This document shows, one piece after another, positions 33,703 through 41,500 of a stretch of 44,707 bases of DNA. A program made the translations under genes and the position numbers. The notes under the pieces are model-generated. The model did not search any database, was not told the origin of the DNA, and was given only the letters and a program-made list of their open reading frames with translations. Origin of the DNA: Mizugakiibacter sp. (GTDB lineage Bacteria; Pseudomonadota; Gammaproteobacteria; Xanthomonadales; Rhodanobacteraceae); NCBI GenBank assembly GCA_003233305.1, contig QILI01000169.1, positions 1-44,707 of the forward strand, given 5' to 3'. Numbering within the stretch: position 1 is the stretch's first letter; each line of letters begins with the position of its first letter.

Positions 33703-35178
33703 ATGTGTGGAATTATAGGTATCGTAGGTCGTGGCGAGGTTGCCCCGGCTCTGTATGACGGACTGACGGTATTACAACATCGGGGTCAGGATGCGGCGGG
33801 AATTGCCACCATGGATGGTGCGCGTTTGCGCTTGCGTCGGGCCAGCGGGCTGGTGCGTGATGTGTTTCACCAAAAAGATATGCTCAAGTTACGCGGCACG
33901 GTCGGTATTGGCCATTGCCGCTACCCTACAGCCGGTAGTGACGAAGCCGAGGAAGCCCAGCCGTTTTATGTCAATTCCCCTTTTGGCATCGCCTTCGCCC
34001 ACAATGGCAATCTGACCAACACTGCGGCCTTGCGCAAAGCGTTATTTGAACGGGATTGGCGCCATATCAATACCGAGTCCGATTCCGAGGTGTTGCTCAA
34101 CGTGTTGGCTCATGAACTGCATGTGACAGATCGAAATGCTTCGCTGGCCGAACCGCTGTTCCAGGCAGTCACCAAGGTGCATAAACGCGCCCGCGGTGGG
34201 TATGCGTGTCTGGCCATGATCCTGGGCCATGGCCTGCTGGCGTTTCGTGATCCCAATGGCATTCGCCCGCTGGTGTTGGGGGAACGGATCGGTCCAAACG
34301 GCACGGAATACGCGGTGGCCTCAGAATCCGTAGCGCTCGATGTACTTGGTTTTCGCCGATTGCGCGATGTGGCGCCGGGTGAAGCGGTGTTCATCAGCCT
34401 GGATGGACGCATGCAGACCCGAATCTGTGCCCATGGTGCGGTCCACGCGCCGTGCATATTCGAGTATGTATATTTGGCGCGACCGGATTCGATGATCGAG
34501 GATGTTTCGGTCTACAAGGCGCGGTTGCGTATGGGTGAAAAGTTGGCGGTACGGATCATGGAACAGTGTCCCGACCACGGTATCGACGCGGTCATCCCGA
34601 TCCCCGACACTGCTCGCACTGCCGCCAGTTCGCTGGCAGGTAAGCTGGGGGTGCCGTTTCGTGAGGGTTTCGTGAAGAACCGCTATGTTGGCCGCACCTT
34701 CATCATGCCCGGCCAGAGCGAACGAGCCAAGTCGGTACGCCGCAAGCTCAATGCGATCGAACTGGAGTTTCGCGACAAGAACGTATTGCTGGTGGATGAT
34801 TCCATCGTTCGCGGCACCACCTCCAAACAGATTATCCAGATGGCCCGCGAGGCGGGTGCACGCAAGGTGTATTTTGCCTCGGCGGCACCACCGGTACGCT
34901 ATCCAAATGTGTACGGGATCGATATGCCGGCGGCCAGTGAACTGGTTGCCCATGGTCGTGATGAAAAAGCTCTGCAGAAACTGCTTGGTGCCGACTGGTT
35001 GATCTACCAGCGGCTGGATGATCTGATCGATGCGGTAGCTGAAGGCAATCTCGATCTGCAGCACTTCGATACGTCTTGTTTTTCGGGTGAGTACGTTACC
35101 GATTTTGAACCGGATTATCTTGAGAATCTTGAACGGGCTCGCTCCGACCAGGCGCGCAGTCGTCTTCGGGCTGGCTGA
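33703..35178 (+). CDS. purF: Amidophosphoribosyltransferase
   Basis: First committed step of purine synthesis: transfers glutamine amide to PRPP, giving phosphoribosylamine. Seen: MCGIIGIVG with the catalytic N-terminal Cys2 (Ntn glutaminase), [21 protein letters not shown], the central [22 protein letters not shown], and the PRPP-binding loop [14 protein letters not shown] (about residues 361-373). 491 residues, class with no Fe-S cluster (as in E. coli). Cys2 directly after the initiator Met fixes the start. Four bases upstream is the cvpA stop. Confidence 0.97.
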
Positions 35179-35186
35179 TACGGGTC

Positions 35187-36038
35187 ATGGAGGTACCTTG
35201 TACGGACGAACCCGGTAGCCTGCAAGCCCTGCCGGATAGTAACGGCCTGTTCGAGCTTGCGGCGCATTGTCTGGCCACCCGTAGCGTGGCCTGCAAACTG
35301 GCCTGGACCGAACAGGTCCACGCCGCCTGGCAGGCAGGGTGTTTGCATCGTGAGACCCCGACCCCAGTAGCGCCGATCGCTGATCCGGGACGCCCCGCAC
35401 GGCCCCGGCTGGTGGCATCGCGCGATGTGCCCCATCGCAAACTCGGTACCACGGTGGGCCGCGCAGCACTGCTGCATGCCGTGGTACATATCGAATTCAA
35501 TGCCATCCAGCTGGCCTGGGATGCAGTCTATCGGTTTCGTGATATGCCCGAGGCGTATTACCACGATTGGGTACAGGTCGCCCTGGATGAAGTCCGGCAT
35601 TTTCGGCTGTTGTCACAGCGGCTTGCCGAATTGGGCTACGCCTACGGCGACTTCGATGCCCACCACGGTTTGTGGGAGATGGCCGTCAAGACAGCCGCTT
35701 CATGTCGGTTGCGTATGGCCCTGGTGCCGCGGGTCTTGGAGGCCCGTGGGCTGGATGTCACGCCGGGCATGATTCAGCGTCTGCGTACCGTTGGCGATAA
35801 CCAAACGGCAGCGATTTTAGAGGTCATTCTGAGTGAAGAAGTGGCCCATGTGGCAGCGGGTTCGCGCTGGTTTCGGTTTACCTGCGAGCGTGAGGGCCTG
35901 GTACCGGAAATCACCTTTCAGGCGGTGCTGGCCGAGTATCTGCCCGGAGGCTTGAAAGGCCCGTTCAATATCGAGGCAAGGCGTCAAGCGGGTTTTACGG
36001 ATAAGGAGCTGGCGCAACTCGGCTCCAGTCCGACCTGA
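35187..36038 (+). CDS. Ferritin-like DUF455 family protein
   Basis: A 283-residue predicted four-helix-bundle protein of the DUF455 family (related to di-iron ferritin-like proteins). Di-iron-type Glu/His residues are in ordered helices: HIEFNAIQLAWDAVYR, DEVRHFRLLSQRLAELGY and SEEVAHVAAGSRWF. The first ~85 residues are more variable. Typical phrases such as FNIEARRQAGFT near the C-terminus match the family. No enzyme activity is firmly assigned. It starts ATG 35187, eight bases after purF, so it is probably co-transcribed with it. Part of this gene (35510-35588) is repeated at 36323-36401. Confidence 0.87.
   Translation: MEVPCTDEPGSLQALPDSNGLFELAAHCLATRSVACKLAWTEQVHAAWQAGCLHRETPTPVAPIADPGRPARPRLVASRDVPHRKLGTTVGRAALLHAVVHIEFNAIQLAWDAVYRFRDMPEAYYHDWVQVALDEVRHFRLLSQRLAELGYAYGDFDAHHGLWEMAVKTAASCRLRMALVPRVLEARGLDVTPGMIQRLRTVGDNQTAAILEVILSEEVAHVAAGSRWFRFTCEREGLVPEITFQAVLAEYLPGGLKGPFNIEARRQAGFTDKELAQLGSSPT
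35510..35588 (+). repeat. 79-bp segment of the DUF455 gene, first copy
   Basis: Corresponds to residues 109-134 of the DUF455 protein (LAWDAVYRFRDMPEAYYHDW and on). A second copy with four mismatches is at 36323-36401, 813 bases downstream in the same orientation. Confidence 0.9.
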
Positions 36039-36072
36039 CCCCATTCTGCGCTTTGTCTCGCATAGGGATAGA

Positions 36073-36322
36073 TCACCCGTAGGGCAACACGGGATGTTCA
36101 TCGCTGGTGAGCAGACGGGCAAAATGGGGGTTGATGAACAGTTTTTCATGACCGGCCTTGATCTCGCGCAACATGCCCAGGTCGGTCAGTTGCTTGAGAT
36201 ACACCGAGGCGGTCTGGCGCTTGGCGATGTCCGCTTTCACCAGGTTCTGGATACGGCTGCACAAACAGCATGTCGACCAGTTCGCGCGTGTAGATCTTAC
36301 TGGCACGTGTTTTGACGAAATG
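36073..36322 (-). pseudogene. C-terminal remnant of a Fic-family protein gene
   Basis: On the minus strand the frame ending at the TGA at 36073-36075 reads RIQNLVKADIAKRQTASVYLKQL, DLGMLREIKAGHEKLF and NPHFARLLTSDEHPVLPYG. This is the C-terminal winged-helix region typical of long Fic (AMPylase-family) proteins with the RQTASVYLKQL signature. Just upstream another frame reads KIYTRELVDMLFVQPY, the preceding family text, so a small deletion/frameshift lies near 36250. The catalytic HxFx(D/E)GNGR Fic core is gone: the remnant ends abruptly at about 36322 where a DUF455 gene fragment begins. Not functional. The family call is from memory of the C-terminal motif. Confidence 0.75.
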
Positions 36323-36401
36323 GCTGGCCTGGGATGCAGTCTATCGGTTGCGCGATATGCCCGAGGCGTATTACCACGACTGGGTACAGGTCGCCCCGGA
36401 T
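36323..36401 (+). repeat. Displaced second copy of a DUF455 gene segment
   Basis: Differs from 35510-35588 at four of 79 positions. Three of the four changes fall in third codon positions (Phe to Leu, and silent changes in Arg and Asp codons), one in a second position (Leu to Pro). It is flanked by the Fic remnant on one side and unrecognised sequence on the other, so it is an isolated gene fragment, not a gene. Confidence 0.9.
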
Positions 36402-36472
36402 TTCGCTCGTACTCCATTCGGGCTACGCGTGCTCACCTGCAACCTACCCATTTCCACTGGATCGATCCCGGT
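36402..36472. other. Short unrecognised sequence after the fragment
   Basis: About 70 bases between the displaced DUF455 fragment and the stop codon of the next minus-strand ORF. No similarity recognised on either strand. Confidence 0.3.
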
Positions 36473-36781
36473 TCAAACGTCGTCCCCGAATAACAGATCC
36501 CAGCTGTGGACGTCACCGGCCAGCAGCTCCAGCCCGGACCGTATGGGTCGCAGGCAGGGGTTGGCTGCAAAGTGATGAGCAAGATCCCCGGCAGCAGGAG
36601 AAAAATAGGCGGTGACTGTACAATGCAGGCTATGTTCCAGCTCGTGGCGCTTGAATACGGCCAGGTCTGCCTGACATCCGGATGATGCGTAGAGATCCCG
36701 GTAGCGTTGCTCAATTTCCCCAATGGGGAGATCGGCGAGCAGGCCGTCACCCAACGATAGCTGAAACCAGGTTTGGGTCAT
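36473..36781 (-). CDS. Hypothetical 102-aa protein
   Basis: I do not recognise this protein. It is a small, slightly acidic, soluble-looking polypeptide without signal peptide or membrane segment, beginning MTQTWFQLSLGDGLLADLPIGE. Notable is the run FKRHELEHSLHCTVTAYFSPAA, with closely spaced His, Glu and Cys residues that could bind a metal, and a C-terminal Cys-Leu-Arg-Pro segment followed by SGLELLAGDVHSWDLLFGDD. ATG 36781 has AAAGG about eight bases upstream, and the base composition is like neighbouring genes, so it is probably real. It lies alone on the minus strand, next to gene debris and pointing into it. Confidence 0.6.
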   Translation of the reverse strand: MTQTWFQLSLGDGLLADLPIGEIEQRYRDLYASSGCQADLAVFKRHELEHSLHCTVTAYFSPAAGDLAHHFAANPCLRPIRSGLELLAGDVHSWDLLFGDDV

Positions 36782-37185
36782 GCTGGGAACCTTTAGTCAA
36801 AGTTTTGTGAGCTGGCTGTGAGGGCCCCAGTTCTGTTGGGGTGAGAATCGTGGTTAACTCCCGACCAGCTTGACTGTTACCAGTCATTTCATGCTGAGTA
36901 CCGGGGTCGGGCGGTACTCGGATGTGCACCCAATCTGACCTACAGGGTACTATCTCCCGTGAGTCTCCGAAGCTGTAGCCAGAATCATTGCCGACCTGGC
37001 CTATGGATCGAGCTCCAGCGTACCGGTTAAATCTTGGTGCGATGTTGCACTTTGCGATGTTGCACTTTGTGATGGAATTGTCCGCTTGGCCGGCATGGAA
37101 GAAATGGCGGTTCAAAAGTACGCAGGGAAGCCATTGCGGATTTCTGTATCGAATGCATCGCCTCCTTCCGGACTGAGAATTCTTC
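36782..37185. other. 404-base gap before ggt
   Basis: No convincing gene. It contains a small hairpin CCCCA/TGGGG (36825-36841) without T-run and a perfect 15-base tandem duplication, GCGATGTTGCACTTT at 37039-37053 and 37054-37068. Short open frames here have no recognisable content. Promoters for the hypothetical gene (minus) and ggt (plus) should lie here, but none is clear. Confidence 0.4.
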
Positions 37186-38961
37186 ATGCGAAAGCTTGCC
37201 CTCCTATTGATCGCCTGGCTCATTTTTGTTGCCGTGCCCATGCCGGCCATGTCTGCCGGGCGCGATATCCAATCCCCCATTTCTACCCAGGCGCTGGATT
37301 TTAGTACCGGGGTGGCGACACTTAAAACGCTGGATGGACTGAAGCCCGTCGTGGCGCGCCATGCCATGGTGGTCACGGCCCAGCATCTGGCTACACGGGT
37401 CGGTGTGGATATTTTGAAAAAAGGGGGCAATGCCATTGATGCTGCTGTAGCTATTGGCTATGCCCTGGCCGTCGTACACCCGTGTTGCGGCAACATTGGT
37501 GGGGGTGGATTCATGATCCTGCACCGCGCCAACGGCCAAAACATTTTTCTCGACTTCCGCGAGAAGGCCCCGCTCAAGGCGTATCCAACCCTGTATCAAA
37601 ATGCCCAGGGCAAGGTGATACCCGGACTGAGTACCGAAACCTATTTGGGGGTGGGGGTGTCCGGTACCGTGATGGGTCTGAATGCCGCGTTGGCTAAATA
37701 TGGCACGATGAGTTTGCAACAGGTCATGGCGCCGGCTATCGCCTTGGCCAGTAAGGGCTATATCCTCGAACCGGGAGATGTCCATATCCTCAATGAACGG
37801 ATCAAGGACTTCTACAAGCATGCCAATGTAGGGGCGATTTTTCTAAATCATGGCAAACCGTGGCAGGTGGGCCAGCGCCTGCGGCAACGACAACTTGCTC
37901 ATACCCTGAAGCTGATTGCCCAAGGTGGCACCCGGGCCTTCTATAAGGGCTCGATTGCGCGAGCCATTGTCGCTTCCAGCAAACGTCATCACGGCCTACT
38001 CACGATGCAGGATTTCGCTGACTACAGTGTGGTCTGGGCCAAACCCATCGAGTGCGAGTATCGCGGCTACACCATTGTTTCCGATCCACCGCCAAGTTCC
38101 GGTGGCACCACGATTTGTGAGATCTTGCAGATCATTAAGCCCTACCCACTGGCTAAATGGGGTTACGCTTCAGTGGATAGTCTGCATTACCTGATTGAGG
38201 CTGAACGGCATGCTTTCGCCGATCGCAACACCTATCTCGGCGACCCTGCGTTTGTGCACAATCCGATTCAACGCCTGCTTTCGCCGGAACATGCCGCGAA
38301 GATTCGCGCTGCTATCCATCCCCATGCCGCCACGCCGTCATCACAGGTGAAAGGCAGTCTGGGTCCGGCCGAAGGTAGGCACACGACACAGTTTTCGGTC
38401 GTCGATGCCAAGGGTAATGCCGTCAGTGTTACCTACACCATCAATTATCTGTTTGGATTGGGGCAGATTGCCGGCAACACCGGCTTCTTTCTCAACAACG
38501 AGATGGACGACTTTACCTCCAAGCCCGGTGTACCCAACAGCTTTGGCCTGGTTCAGGGGCGTATCAACCAGATCGAACCGGGCAAGCGTCCACTCAGTTC
38601 CATGTCCCCAAGCATGGTGTTACGCAAGGGCAAGCTATTTATGGTAACCGGTAGTCCTGGGGGGTCGACCATCATTACCACCACCTTGCAGACTATGCTC
38701 AATGTGATCGATTTTGGCATGAACATGCAGCAATCAGTCGATGCGCCGCGTTTTCATGAACAGTGGTTGCCCTCCAGGGTGATGGTTGAACCCGGGTTAC
38801 TTACAGCGGCCGTAAAAGCACGTCTGGAGCAGATGGGCTACCGGTTCAAGCCGGTGCATGCCTGGGGTGCAGCAATGGCTATTCTAGTCAATCCGAAGAC
38901 CGGCTGGATCGAGGGGGCGGCTGACCGTCGGCGCCCGGCAGCGTTGGCTGAAGGCTATTAG
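37186..38961 (+). CDS. ggt: Gamma-glutamyltransferase (periplasmic)
   Basis: Cleaves the gamma-glutamyl bond of glutathione and related compounds in the periplasm; made as a proenzyme that cuts itself into large and small subunits. A signal peptide is visible at residues 1-24 (MRKLALLLIAWLIFVAVPMPAMSAG). Large-subunit motifs include GGNAIDAAVAIGYALAVVHP, CCGNIGGGGFM and the FREKAP glutamate-binding Arg. The autocleavage/catalytic Thr is the first Thr of TTQFSVVDAKGNAVSVTYT (about residue 400). PLSSMSPSMVL and TGSPGGSTIITT in the small subunit bind the substrate. 591 residues, full length. It stands alone and converges on the S53 peptidase gene. Confidence 0.95.
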   Translation: MRKLALLLIAWLIFVAVPMPAMSAGRDIQSPISTQALDFSTGVATLKTLDGLKPVVARHAMVVTAQHLATRVGVDILKKGGNAIDAAVAIGYALAVVHPCCGNIGGGGFMILHRANGQNIFLDFREKAPLKAYPTLYQNAQGKVIPGLSTETYLGVGVSGTVMGLNAALAKYGTMSLQQVMAPAIALASKGYILEPGDVHILNERIKDFYKHANVGAIFLNHGKPWQVGQRLRQRQLAHTLKLIAQGGTRAFYKGSIARAIVASSKRHHGLLTMQDFADYSVVWAKPIECEYRGYTIVSDPPPSSGGTTICEILQIIKPYPLAKWGYASVDSLHYLIEAERHAFADRNTYLGDPAFVHNPIQRLLSPEHAAKIRAAIHPHAATPSSQVKGSLGPAEGRHTTQFSVVDAKGNAVSVTYTINYLFGLGQIAGNTGFFLNNEMDDFTSKPGVPNSFGLVQGRINQIEPGKRPLSSMSPSMVLRKGKLFMVTGSPGGSTIITTTLQTMLNVIDFGMNMQQSVDAPRFHEQWLPSRVMVEPGLLTAAVKARLEQMGYRFKPVHAWGAAMAILVNPKTGWIEGAADRRRPAALAEGY

Positions 38962-39136: not shown

Positions 39137-41500
39137 TCAAGGATGCTGTAAGCAGAGTGTGTAGCTGCCACTTCCTGAATAGGAGGACACATCCCAAGTG
39201 TAGTAGCCGGATGCACCGTAATAATTGATCGACTCACTGGAGGTCGGACCGGTTGAGCTGGCGACCTGAGTCCATCCATACCAACTCGACCACTGGTACA
39301 GGTTCAAGTCGAAGTCGGCAGAACTTGGGCCGGACAAAATACCTTTTTCAGCCCCGCCGGCGGCATAGTAGTAACTACCATTAGGCTGGGTCTGATCGGT
39401 ACCGCTACCGGATAGGCTACCGGTGTACTTGGTGTAACCACTGGGGCAACCTGTTGCGACCACCACTTGCTTGATCGTAATCGATTCGGTTGCGGCGTTG
39501 GAGACATTGCCAACACTGTCGGTTGCGGTAAACGTAAACGAATCGCTGCCGTAGAAATTTACAGTCGGCGTGTAGGTAAACGCACCGGTTGCGGTGTTGG
39601 TGATCGACACCGTTCCGTGTGAGGGTTGACCGGCGATAGCAAAAGTTAGCGTATCGCCATCAGAGTCCGATGCCGAAAGCGTACCCGCTACGGCCTTGTT
39701 CTCATTGGTGCTGACCGAACCATTGCTGGCAACCGGAGTCGCGTTGGTGGGCGGCGGTGGTGTGCTGCCACCGGCTGCGGTCACGATATCGCTGATCAGG
39801 TTGGTGGCATTGGGGGTGCCCCAGCCGGTGGGGTGATCCCAGCCGATACCAGCAGTGAAAGCACCATTGCTACCGGAAGTGACGTCATGGAAATCACTGC
39901 TGTAGTGACCCGCATTGGCATCATTGTAGACGGCCGAATTAGCCTGACCGAGACGGGTGCCACTATTTTGCGCCACCCCATCGGCCCACAAGCCGGCCAG
40001 TTCAGGAGCGACGAAGCTGGTGCCGCCATAAACGGCCCAAGAACCATTAAGAAGGACCGAATAGCCAGTGCTGGGATCGGCATTCATAGACAGGTCGGCC
40101 GTGTTGCGCTTGTTGTTCTGGGGTACGCCGGTTCCGGTTTGCCAAGTGGGCTCGCTGAATACGGAACTTTCGGCGCCACCGCCATTCGTCCAAGCAGTTT
40201 CATTGGAGATTGTGTTGCTTGAGGTAAGCACCAGGTTGGTGCCGCCCGCAGCCAACACGTAGGGGTCCGAAGAAGGATAGTCGGCCGTATCGGTATTGCT
40301 AGTGCTGTCCGCTGAGCCATTATCACCGGCAGCAGCAAACACTGAAATACCCTGGGCCGAGGCCTGCTTGAAGATATTGTCATCAGCCGTCATGGTGGCC
40401 GAACTCATGTTTGATTCGGCGGTACCCCAGCTGGTCGTCATGACCTGCGCGGTGTTGTCGGTGACAATCTTGTTGTACGTATCGGTGAAATCAGTCAGCG
40501 ATGAGCTGTTGGCATCGTAGACGACCAGGGTGGCCCCCGGTGCCATGGCGCCACTACGCTCCACATCGATGGTGGTTTCGCCGGTACCGGAGGTGGCTGC
40601 AGCACTGCCATCGACGTTGATCATCTGCACGGTGTGGGTGGGCAGCCCGTACTGGTTCCAGAAGCCGTCGTAGTCACTGGCCGCCAGATTGGTGCTCTGG
40701 GCGGTAGCAATGGCGATGGTGACGCCGTTGGCGTTAGCAGTATTAGTGATCGATGGCCAGTTGTAGGCCGTCGCGATCTGCAGTGGCGAAAAGCCTGACG
40801 GGGTGCTGTTGGCCGTAGCGTGTGAGCTGCCACCAATGCGGTGGGCACCCGTATGACGACCACCGGAGGGCATACCTGGCTCACGAATGATGTGCGCGCG
40901 CCGATAATGCGGCTGCAATTTCGCCGCATTGCTCAGACCGATAATCGACTGCACGGTTCCCGCCAGGGCCACCGGTACTTTGGGACGAACGGCCGGGGCA
41001 AAAAATTGCTTGCCACGCAGGCTGTAATCATTGATCTGCGTGCTGAAGGCGCGTTCAAGTCGAGCGGTGCTGCCGCTGGCGCGGATCAGCAGACGATTGC
41101 TGGCCACCGAGCGAACCTGCAGGCCTTGTGAACGGAGATATTTGCTAACGGCACGAACCTGCTTCTGAGTTGGACCGTACATCGCGGTAAACTGCGCAGG
41201 AGTCAGAAAATGATGATATTCAGGACTGGCTGGGTTATGCACTGCGCGCAAAAACGCATTGAGCTGGGCCGTATGGCGCAGTTTCAGACTGACCAGGATA
41301 TGAATCGGGCTGGACGAGATATGTCGACCCACCATACGGGCCTGGCCGACGATAGAAGGAACTTTCTGGACCGCCATTCGTTCGGTGGTGGTCTGGGTAG
41401 AAGGAGCACGGGCAAAAGCGACACTGCACAATAGCAACGCGGCAATTCCCGTAGTGGTAGTGAGCCAACTTATATGGGTGCCATTCTTTATTATTTGCAT
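39137..41500 (-). CDS. Secreted S53 family (sedolisin/kumamolisin) serine-carboxyl peptidase
   Basis: A 787-residue exported acid-type protease precursor. Signal peptide about 1-31 (hydrophobic IAALLLCSVAFARA). Prokumamolisin propeptide about 45-195, with HHFLTPAQFTAMYGPTQ and the later LIRASGSTARLERAFSTQI. Catalytic domain about 240-585: Glu308 and Asp312 in GETTIDVERSGAMAPG, Asp393 of the oxyanion site in FAAAGDNGS, and Ser495 in YGGTSFVAPELAGLWA; the calcium-site region is FHDVTSG...GWDHPTGWGTPN. Then a cadherin/VCBS-like bacterial Ig repeat about 605-695 (NENKAVAGTLSASDSDGDTL and YTPTVNFYGSDSFTFTATDS). Last comes a ~95-residue Ser/Tyr/Gly-rich C-terminal domain, resembling pre-peptidase C-terminal domains. 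AGAGGAAAC precedes ATG 41500. The four active-site residues are all kept. Confidence 0.92.
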   Translation of the reverse strand: MQIIKNGTHISWLTTTTGIAALLLCSVAFARAPSTQTTTERMAVQKVPSIVGQARMVGRHISSSPIHILVSLKLRHTAQLNAFLRAVHNPASPEYHHFLTPAQFTAMYGPTQKQVRAVSKYLRSQGLQVRSVASNRLLIRASGSTARLERAFSTQINDYSLRGKQFFAPAVRPKVPVALAGTVQSIIGLSNAAKLQPHYRRAHIIREPGMPSGGRHTGAHRIGGSSHATANSTPSGFSPLQIATAYNWPSITNTANANGVTIAIATAQSTNLAASDYDGFWNQYGLPTHTVQMINVDGSAAATSGTGETTIDVERSGAMAPGATLVVYDANSSSLTDFTDTYNKIVTDNTAQVMTTSWGTAESNMSSATMTADDNIFKQASAQGISVFAAAGDNGSADSTSNTDTADYPSSDPYVLAAGGTNLVLTSSNTISNETAWTNGGGAESSVFSEPTWQTGTGVPQNNKRNTADLSMNADPSTGYSVLLNGSWAVYGGTSFVAPELAGLWADGVAQNSGTRLGQANSAVYNDANAGHYSSDFHDVTSGSNGAFTAGIGWDHPTGWGTPNATNLISDIVTAAGGSTPPPPTNATPVASNGSVSTNENKAVAGTLSASDSDGDTLTFAIAGQPSHGTVSITNTATGAFTYTPTVNFYGSDSFTFTATDSVGNVSNAATESITIKQVVVATGCPSGYTKYTGSLSGSGTDQTQPNGSYYYAAGGAEKGILSGPSSADFDLNLYQWSSWYGWTQVASSTGPTSSESINYYGASGYYTWDVSSYSGSGSYTLCLQHP

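What the first reader, a model, noticed from the sequence alone, without database searches (positions are those of the whole stretch)
36323..36401. A 79-bp displaced copy of the neighbouring DUF455 gene
The segment matches 35510-35588 with four mismatches, in the same orientation, but without the rest of the gene. Three of the four changes are at third codon positions, which suggests that the fragment diverged while still under protein-level selection, i.e. it may come from another (allelic or foreign) DUF455 gene, not from a recent local duplication. It looks like a scar of homologous or illegitimate recombination and could in turn support deletion of the 813 bases between the copies.
Basis: partly seen in the sequence, partly recalled or inferred. 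Interest (0 to 1): 0.5.

Follow-up and report, generated by a model that had tools for sequence, protein, structure and literature searches.

The report
DUF455 gene patch at recombination scar
A roughly 71-base piece of a ferritin-like (DUF455) gene has been pasted a short way downstream, between the broken end of a fic gene and a short repeated palindrome; it looks like a small scar of sloppy DNA recombination, not a functional element.

Summary
The repeat is real: 35510-35588 and 36323-36401 match over 79 bases with four mismatches and are the only two places found in the draft genome. Its edges explain it. On the left the copy joins the 3' part of a minus-strand fic gene (36067-36320) that is intact in same-genus genome G001; fic and DUF455 share TGGCCTGGG at that join. 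On the right, the last eight bases belong to a REP-like palindrome (36394-36426) with seven places in the genome against none for the control pattern. The DUF455-derived patch is therefore about 71 bp with three changes; the fourth is the palindrome's own base. The site is a synteny breakpoint relative to G001. Best reading: a short DUF455 patch used as filler in an illegitimate recombination that broke fic. The codon argument for a foreign allele is weak: three third-position changes of three has p about 0.04, and one is a Phe-to-Leu change seen in 0 of 22 relatives. A donor allele is not excluded. Ordinary in kind; low interest.

The parts
35187..36038 (+). Intact DUF455 (ferritin-like) gene, 283 aa, the likely source of the patch
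   Evidence: PF04305 E 5e-98; a purF-like gene lies upstream (named by me; Pfam GATase and Pribosyltran), as in 5 of the 9 DUF455 loci compared
35510..35580 (+). Source stretch matching the patch (71 bp, three differences)
36067..36320 (-). 3' part of a truncated fic gene (stop codon at 36073-36075), lacking 8 bases near 36250 relative to G001, a frameshift
   Evidence: PF21248 SoFic-like_C E 2e-17; 7 of 254 compared bases differ from the intact 375-aa fic of G001
36325..36333 (+). Left join: TGGCCTGGG, present in both the fic gene (G001 copy) and DUF455; ATGCAGT (36334-36340) is shared too, after one extra T in fic
   Evidence: a random fic/DUF455 breakpoint pair touches an exact run of 9 or more with frequency 3.2e-5
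36323..36393 (+). Displaced DUF455 patch
36394..36426 (-). REP-like palindrome (GTAG head; arms CCCGAAT and ATCCGGG); its CCCCGGAT end (plus strand) matches DUF455 CCCTGGAT in 7 of 8 bases, the right join
   Evidence: head and arms as in the P. mendocina REP of PMC2817692 Table 1 (passage)
36473..36781 (-). Small ORF of 102 aa without a Pfam match, next to the gamma-glutamyltranspeptidase gene here and in G001; right side of the synteny breakpoint

Best explanation
A short DUF455 stretch was copied or captured as filler DNA when the fic region was rearranged. A DNA end or strand in the 3' part of fic paired with DUF455 at the shared TGGCCTGGG, copied or carried about 71 bases, and was then joined at CCC(T/C)GGAT to a REP-like palindrome. 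The product lost the rest of fic and linked the purF-DUF455 side to the orf102-GGT side. Shown: the three blocks, the shared sequence at both edges, the truncation of fic relative to G001, and the synteny break relative to G001. Inferred: that it was one event, its direction, and that the source was the neighbouring gene itself and not a close allele. The patch itself most likely does nothing.
For: Only two places in the genome; 74 of 78 codon bases shared with the neighbouring gene against at most 59 of 78 with 22 relatives. fic intact in G001 and continuing past the join. Exact 9-bp sharing at the left join and 7 of 8 at the right (2 of 845 DUF455 positions match the palindrome's end that well). 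REP-like family, 7 places against 0 for the reversed control. G001 has DUF455 tail-fic-dacC and amtB-glnB-orf102-GGT, whereas the window's genome has DUF455-fic tail-patch-orf102-GGT and amtB-glnB-dacC.
Against: Shared 9-mers between fic and DUF455 are no more frequent than chance (4 starting positions in DUF455, about 3.7 expected), and the longest shared word, a 10-mer at 35501-35510, pairs with another part of fic and is not at the join; only the position of TGGCCTGGG at the join is telling. The join carries the DUF455 base (C, 36324) just before that word, so the switch was not simply inside it unless the ancestral fic differed from G001's. The right-hand sharing is short. G001 is an 81%-complete draft on small contigs and its own DUF455 is only a tail, so it is an imperfect ancestor. 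That patch and rearrangement were one event is not shown. An assembly error at the join cannot be excluded without reads.
Confidence: 0.62

Rival explanations
1. The patch came in with foreign DNA: a fic-bearing piece from a related strain, anchored in DUF455 sequence, entered the cell and was joined illegitimately (homology-facilitated illegitimate recombination), leaving a stretch of the donor's DUF455 allele.
For: The fic tail differs from G001 at 7 of 254 bases (2.8%), far less than the 10-21% of five other stretches of the two genomes (Fisher p 0.006 to 1e-11), so fic probably moved recently; the patch differs from the local gene by a similar 3 of 71 (4.2%, 95% CI 0.9-11.9). At the two silent sites the patch has the majority codon of relatives.
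Against: The Phe-to-Leu change is in 0 of 22 relatives; no genome examined carries a closer DUF455; the confidence interval also fits local drift; the passages seen speak of inserts of 3 to 10 bases for this process (PMC6382021).
Confidence: 0.24
2. The patch is what remains of a former second, tandem DUF455 gene.
For: Same orientation, 813 bp away.
Against: The DUF455 match ends at the fic and palindrome joins, and none of the 12 other genomes of the genus has two DUF455 matches.
Confidence: 0.05
3. Assembly or binning artefact: a chimeric join in a draft of 172 contigs.
For: Draft genome; the join itself has no second witness.
Against: The copy carries three differences, which a chimera of the same gene would not show unless strains were mixed; DUF455 tail next to fic, and orf102 next to GGT, are each seen in G001.
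Confidence: 0.09

Closest known systems
Homology-facilitated and double illegitimate recombination in naturally transformable bacteria (Acinetobacter baylyi, Streptococcus pneumoniae, Pseudomonas stutzeri); 'short-patch double illegitimate recombination' is recalled, not found in the library
   Same: DNA is set into the chromosome with one or both ends joined illegitimately at a few shared bases (PMC3240628 abstract; PMC6382021 passages; title of Hulter and Wackernagel 2008 in a reference list)
   Different: Here inferred from one sequence; the patch is about 71 bp, whereas PMC6382021 speaks of 3-10 bp segments; competence, RecA dependence and donor unknown
Microhomology-mediated template switching / templated insertions (MMBIR; in the listing, of which titles and abstract starts were seen, studied in eukaryotes)
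   Same: Filler copied from other DNA between two short homologies at a rearrangement join
   Different: Bacterial; enzymes and timing unknown; the copy differs from its source at three bases
REP elements (GTAG-headed palindromes, RAYT-associated)
   Same: GTAG head and CCCGGAT/ATCCGGG-type arms, as in the Pseudomonas mendocina REP GTAGCCCGGATGCAATCCGGG of PMC2817692 Table 1 (passage)
   Different: Longer loop; only seven places found at up to three mismatches, five of them with exact GTAG; no REP-like copy found within 1.5 kb of a Y1-transposase match

Membership tests
DUF455 (PF04305), for the patch | Sequence match to the family over its length | tested here: not met
   The 87-aa frame over the patch matches profile positions 80-108 of 247, 28.3 bits, below the cut-off of 34.3: a fragment, not a gene
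[quoted passage not shown]
   36394-36426 minus: GTAG, then arms CCCGAAT / ATCCGGG that pair at 6 of 7 positions (G-T on the plus strand at the seventh). The predicted single-strand DNA fold of 36385-36435 is not stronger than shuffles (z 1.11, 177 of 200 shuffles as stable)
REP element | Dispersed, high copy number | tested here: inconclusive
   7 places at up to 3 mismatches, 0 for the reversed pattern; the pattern was written with two own-genome copies in view. PMC2817692 abstract: usually over 100 copies
REP element | Cognate RAYT (Y1 transposase) gene | tested here: inconclusive
   8 Y1_Tnp matches in the genome, 6 over the cut-off; no REP-like copy at up to 7 mismatches in the 8 loci around them
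Microhomology-mediated illegitimate recombination | Shared short sequence at the joins | tested here: met
   9 of 9 at the left, 7 of 8 at the right, with the caveat that the base before the left word already follows DUF455
Microhomology-mediated illegitimate recombination | Parental sequences of all blocks known | tested here: inconclusive
   fic parent taken from G001, DUF455 parent local, palindrome's parent place unknown
Homology-facilitated illegitimate recombination | Foreign donor DNA, RecA-dependent, one end homologous | not testable with these tools
   needs strains and experiment

The most novel reading that the evidence does not exclude
A natural case in which transferred fic DNA was installed by one-sided homology in DUF455 and closed by a short patch of a donor DUF455 allele onto a REP-like palindrome, so that such palindromes act as preferred landing points for illegitimate joins and rearrangement in this genus.
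Probability: 0.15. Interest if true: 0.4.

Novelty: new member of a known kind. Interest (0 to 1): 0.17.

Why it matters
It is one well-resolved scar showing how short shared words and a REP-like palindrome can sit at the break of a gene and the re-linking of neighbouring regions. It also shows why third-position differences in a short displaced fragment do not by themselves prove a foreign origin: the intact gene may be the one that changed, and a base at the edge may belong to the neighbour. It has no wider consequence unless many such patches are found at REP-like sites.

Tried and rejected
Functional reading of the patch: no RNA family in 35000-37300 at E<=1, the local DNA fold is not stronger than shuffles, and the frame across the patch is only a partial DUF455 match below the cut-off; rejected. 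Mobile carriage of the unit: no relative of DUF455 confirmed in viral contigs and only partial matches in plasmids (5 of 72,556 records, 67-71% identity, none covering 80% of the query). A close named relative: the one scan of genome contigs gave five loci at 48-61% protein identity (records very near the window's genome may be left out there), so the silent sites could be polarised only with distant relatives.

Dating the patch by divergence (3 of 71) was tried; the interval is too wide to place it before or after the G000/G001 split.

Polarising the rearrangement with other genus members failed at E<=1e-3: none of ten GGT regions fetched from nine other genomes and none of 14 dacC-like loci (L103-L116: 13 from 11 other genomes, one from the window's own) shows orf102, glnB, fic or DUF455 nearby. 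A blastn (E<=0.5) of the glnB-dacC spacer of own contig C20 against the window and the two G001 contigs found only one match, to the glnB upstream region of G001, and nothing of fic, DUF455 or the window's palindrome.

Literature: seven searches were run, all on mechanism, gene fragments or REPs and none on this locus, so no claim is made that it is not in print. The phrase 'short-patch double illegitimate recombination' had no occurrence in the papers listed, and the two papers listed for 'SPDIR' showed none in their main text.

In one search, loci L007, L014 and L018 (same genes as L026, L025, L030), L062, L064 and L065 (named hits outside the set used), L031 (tail only) and L032 (partial) were left out before counting the 22 relatives.

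Full report
Observation. The window holds two copies of a 79-base sequence, 35510-35588 inside the DUF455 gene and 36323-36401 downstream, same strand, four mismatches. They are the only places found in the 2.66-Mb draft genome G000, in which the window is contig C11, and the only repeat pair printed for the window at E<=1e-2 (E 5e-29).

Right edge. The bases 36394-36426, read on the minus strand, are GTAGCCCGAATGGAGTACGAGCGAAATCCGGGG. A pattern of this kind has seven places in the genome at up to three mismatches and none for the reversed control pattern (the pattern was written with the window's copy and the C71 copy in view). Twenty first-order random sequences made from the window give no hit even at five mismatches. 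Five of the seven have the exact GTAG head; all have arms of the same kind, and their outer flanks differ. A published REP of Pseudomonas mendocina, GTAGCCCGGATGCAATCCGGG, has the same head and arms (PMC2817692, passage), and a palindrome preceded mostly by GTAG is how REPs are described in PMC8266576 (passages). DUF455 has CCCTGGAT where the palindrome has CCCCGGAT; 2 of 845 positions of the gene match that well. The predicted fold of the stretch is not stronger than shuffles.

Left edge. On the left lies the 3' part of a fic gene on the minus strand (SoFic-like C-terminal domain). Of the 13 held genomes of the genus, G001 has a 375-aa fic with all three Fic-family domains next to the 3' tail of a DUF455 gene and to a D-Ala-D-Ala carboxypeptidase gene, here called dacC. 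Its fic continues past the join. fic and DUF455 share TGGCCTGGG there, followed, after one extra T in fic, by ATGCAGT. A random pair of breakpoints in the two genes touches an exact run of nine or more with frequency 3.2e-5. Against this: shared 9-mers as such are at chance level (4 positions, 3.7 expected) and the longest shared word, a 10-mer, is elsewhere. The join carries the DUF455 base just before the shared word, so the switch was not purely inside it unless the ancestral fic differed. The window's fic tail also lacks eight bases that G001 has, a frameshift.

Wider context. G001 has DUF455 tail-fic-dacC on one contig and amtB-glnB-orf102-GGT on another; the window's genome has DUF455-fic tail-patch-palindrome-orf102-GGT on contig C11 and amtB-glnB-dacC on C20 (families Peptidase_S11, P-II and Ammonium_transp confirmed, the gene names are mine). 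The patch is thus at a synteny breakpoint between the two genomes. Which order is older could not be decided. Divergence between the two genomes is 10.6% for the DUF455 tail, 21.1% orf102, 13.9% GGT, 10.1% dacC, 18.3% glnB, but 2.8% (7 of 254, the 8-base gap not counted) for the fic tail, a significant difference from each (p 0.006 to 1e-11). As the window's fic is already broken, recent transfer of fic between the lineages is the likeliest reason; this is inference.

The codon argument. With the palindrome's base set aside there are three differences, all at third positions: probability 0.037 by chance; with four differences, three or more at third positions, 0.11. TTT to TTG changes Phe to Leu; among 22 relatives the site is Phe in 21 and Tyr in one. 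CGC and GAC, the patch's codons at the other two sites, are the majority in relatives (17 and 20 of 22). The patch is closer than the gene to 17 of the 22, equally close to 4, farther from 1 (counted from the rows, which differ only at the four mismatch sites). A simple account is that the intact gene took two silent changes after copying and the patch one change. A donor allele with those codons is compatible too, so the foreign-allele idea is not established but not excluded. The gene next door remains the best source by far (74 of 78 bases against at most 59 of 78).

Mechanism. Blocks with short shared sequence at both joins, a lost remainder of one gene and a synteny break are the marks of microhomology-mediated illegitimate recombination with templated filler. 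In bacteria the nearest described processes are homology-facilitated illegitimate recombination, with one end homologous and the other illegitimate (PMC3240628, abstract; PMC6382021, passages, which speak of segments of 3-10 bases), and double illegitimate recombination during transformation (title seen in a reference list). Which of these, or a replication template switch, was at work cannot be told from one sequence. A RAYT route is not supported: eight Y1-transposase matches exist in the genome but no REP-like copy was found in the loci around them.

Verdict. The scar reading is supported, the codon-based inference of foreign origin is not established, and the deletion idea is untested. It is ordinary in kind and of low interest.

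Noticed in passing
window 36067-36320 and L034 1675-2799: The broken fic tail is far closer to the intact fic of G001 (2.8%) than five other stretches of the two genomes are (10-21%), which suggests recent transfer of fic between the lineages.
   Followed up: partly
window 36032-36045: GACCTGACCCCATT, across the DUF455 stop codon, is identical to the edge of a dispersed repeat copy at G000 C6 (L085); related copies with ACTGACCCC lie at C1 and C21, the C1 copy 59 bases from a Y1-transposase match. G001 lacks CCCCATT after its DUF455 tail, so a further join may lie here.
   Followed up: partly
L034 (G001 contig C301) 3055-3195: G001 keeps only about the last 32 codons of DUF455, followed by about 45 other bases to the contig end; no other DUF455 match was found in that 81%-complete genome.
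   Followed up: no
L089 3355-4009 (own contig C20): The spacer between glnB and dacC, the other side of the rearrangement, holds GCCCCGGATTTCAC...GCATCGGGGTAAC, a palindrome that resembles the REP-like family by eye but was not hit at up to five mismatches.
   Followed up: no
window 39137-41500, minus strand: A 787-aa protein with a pro-kumamolisin activation domain and Ig- or cadherin-like repeats, so probably a secreted sedolisin-type peptidase.
   Followed up: no
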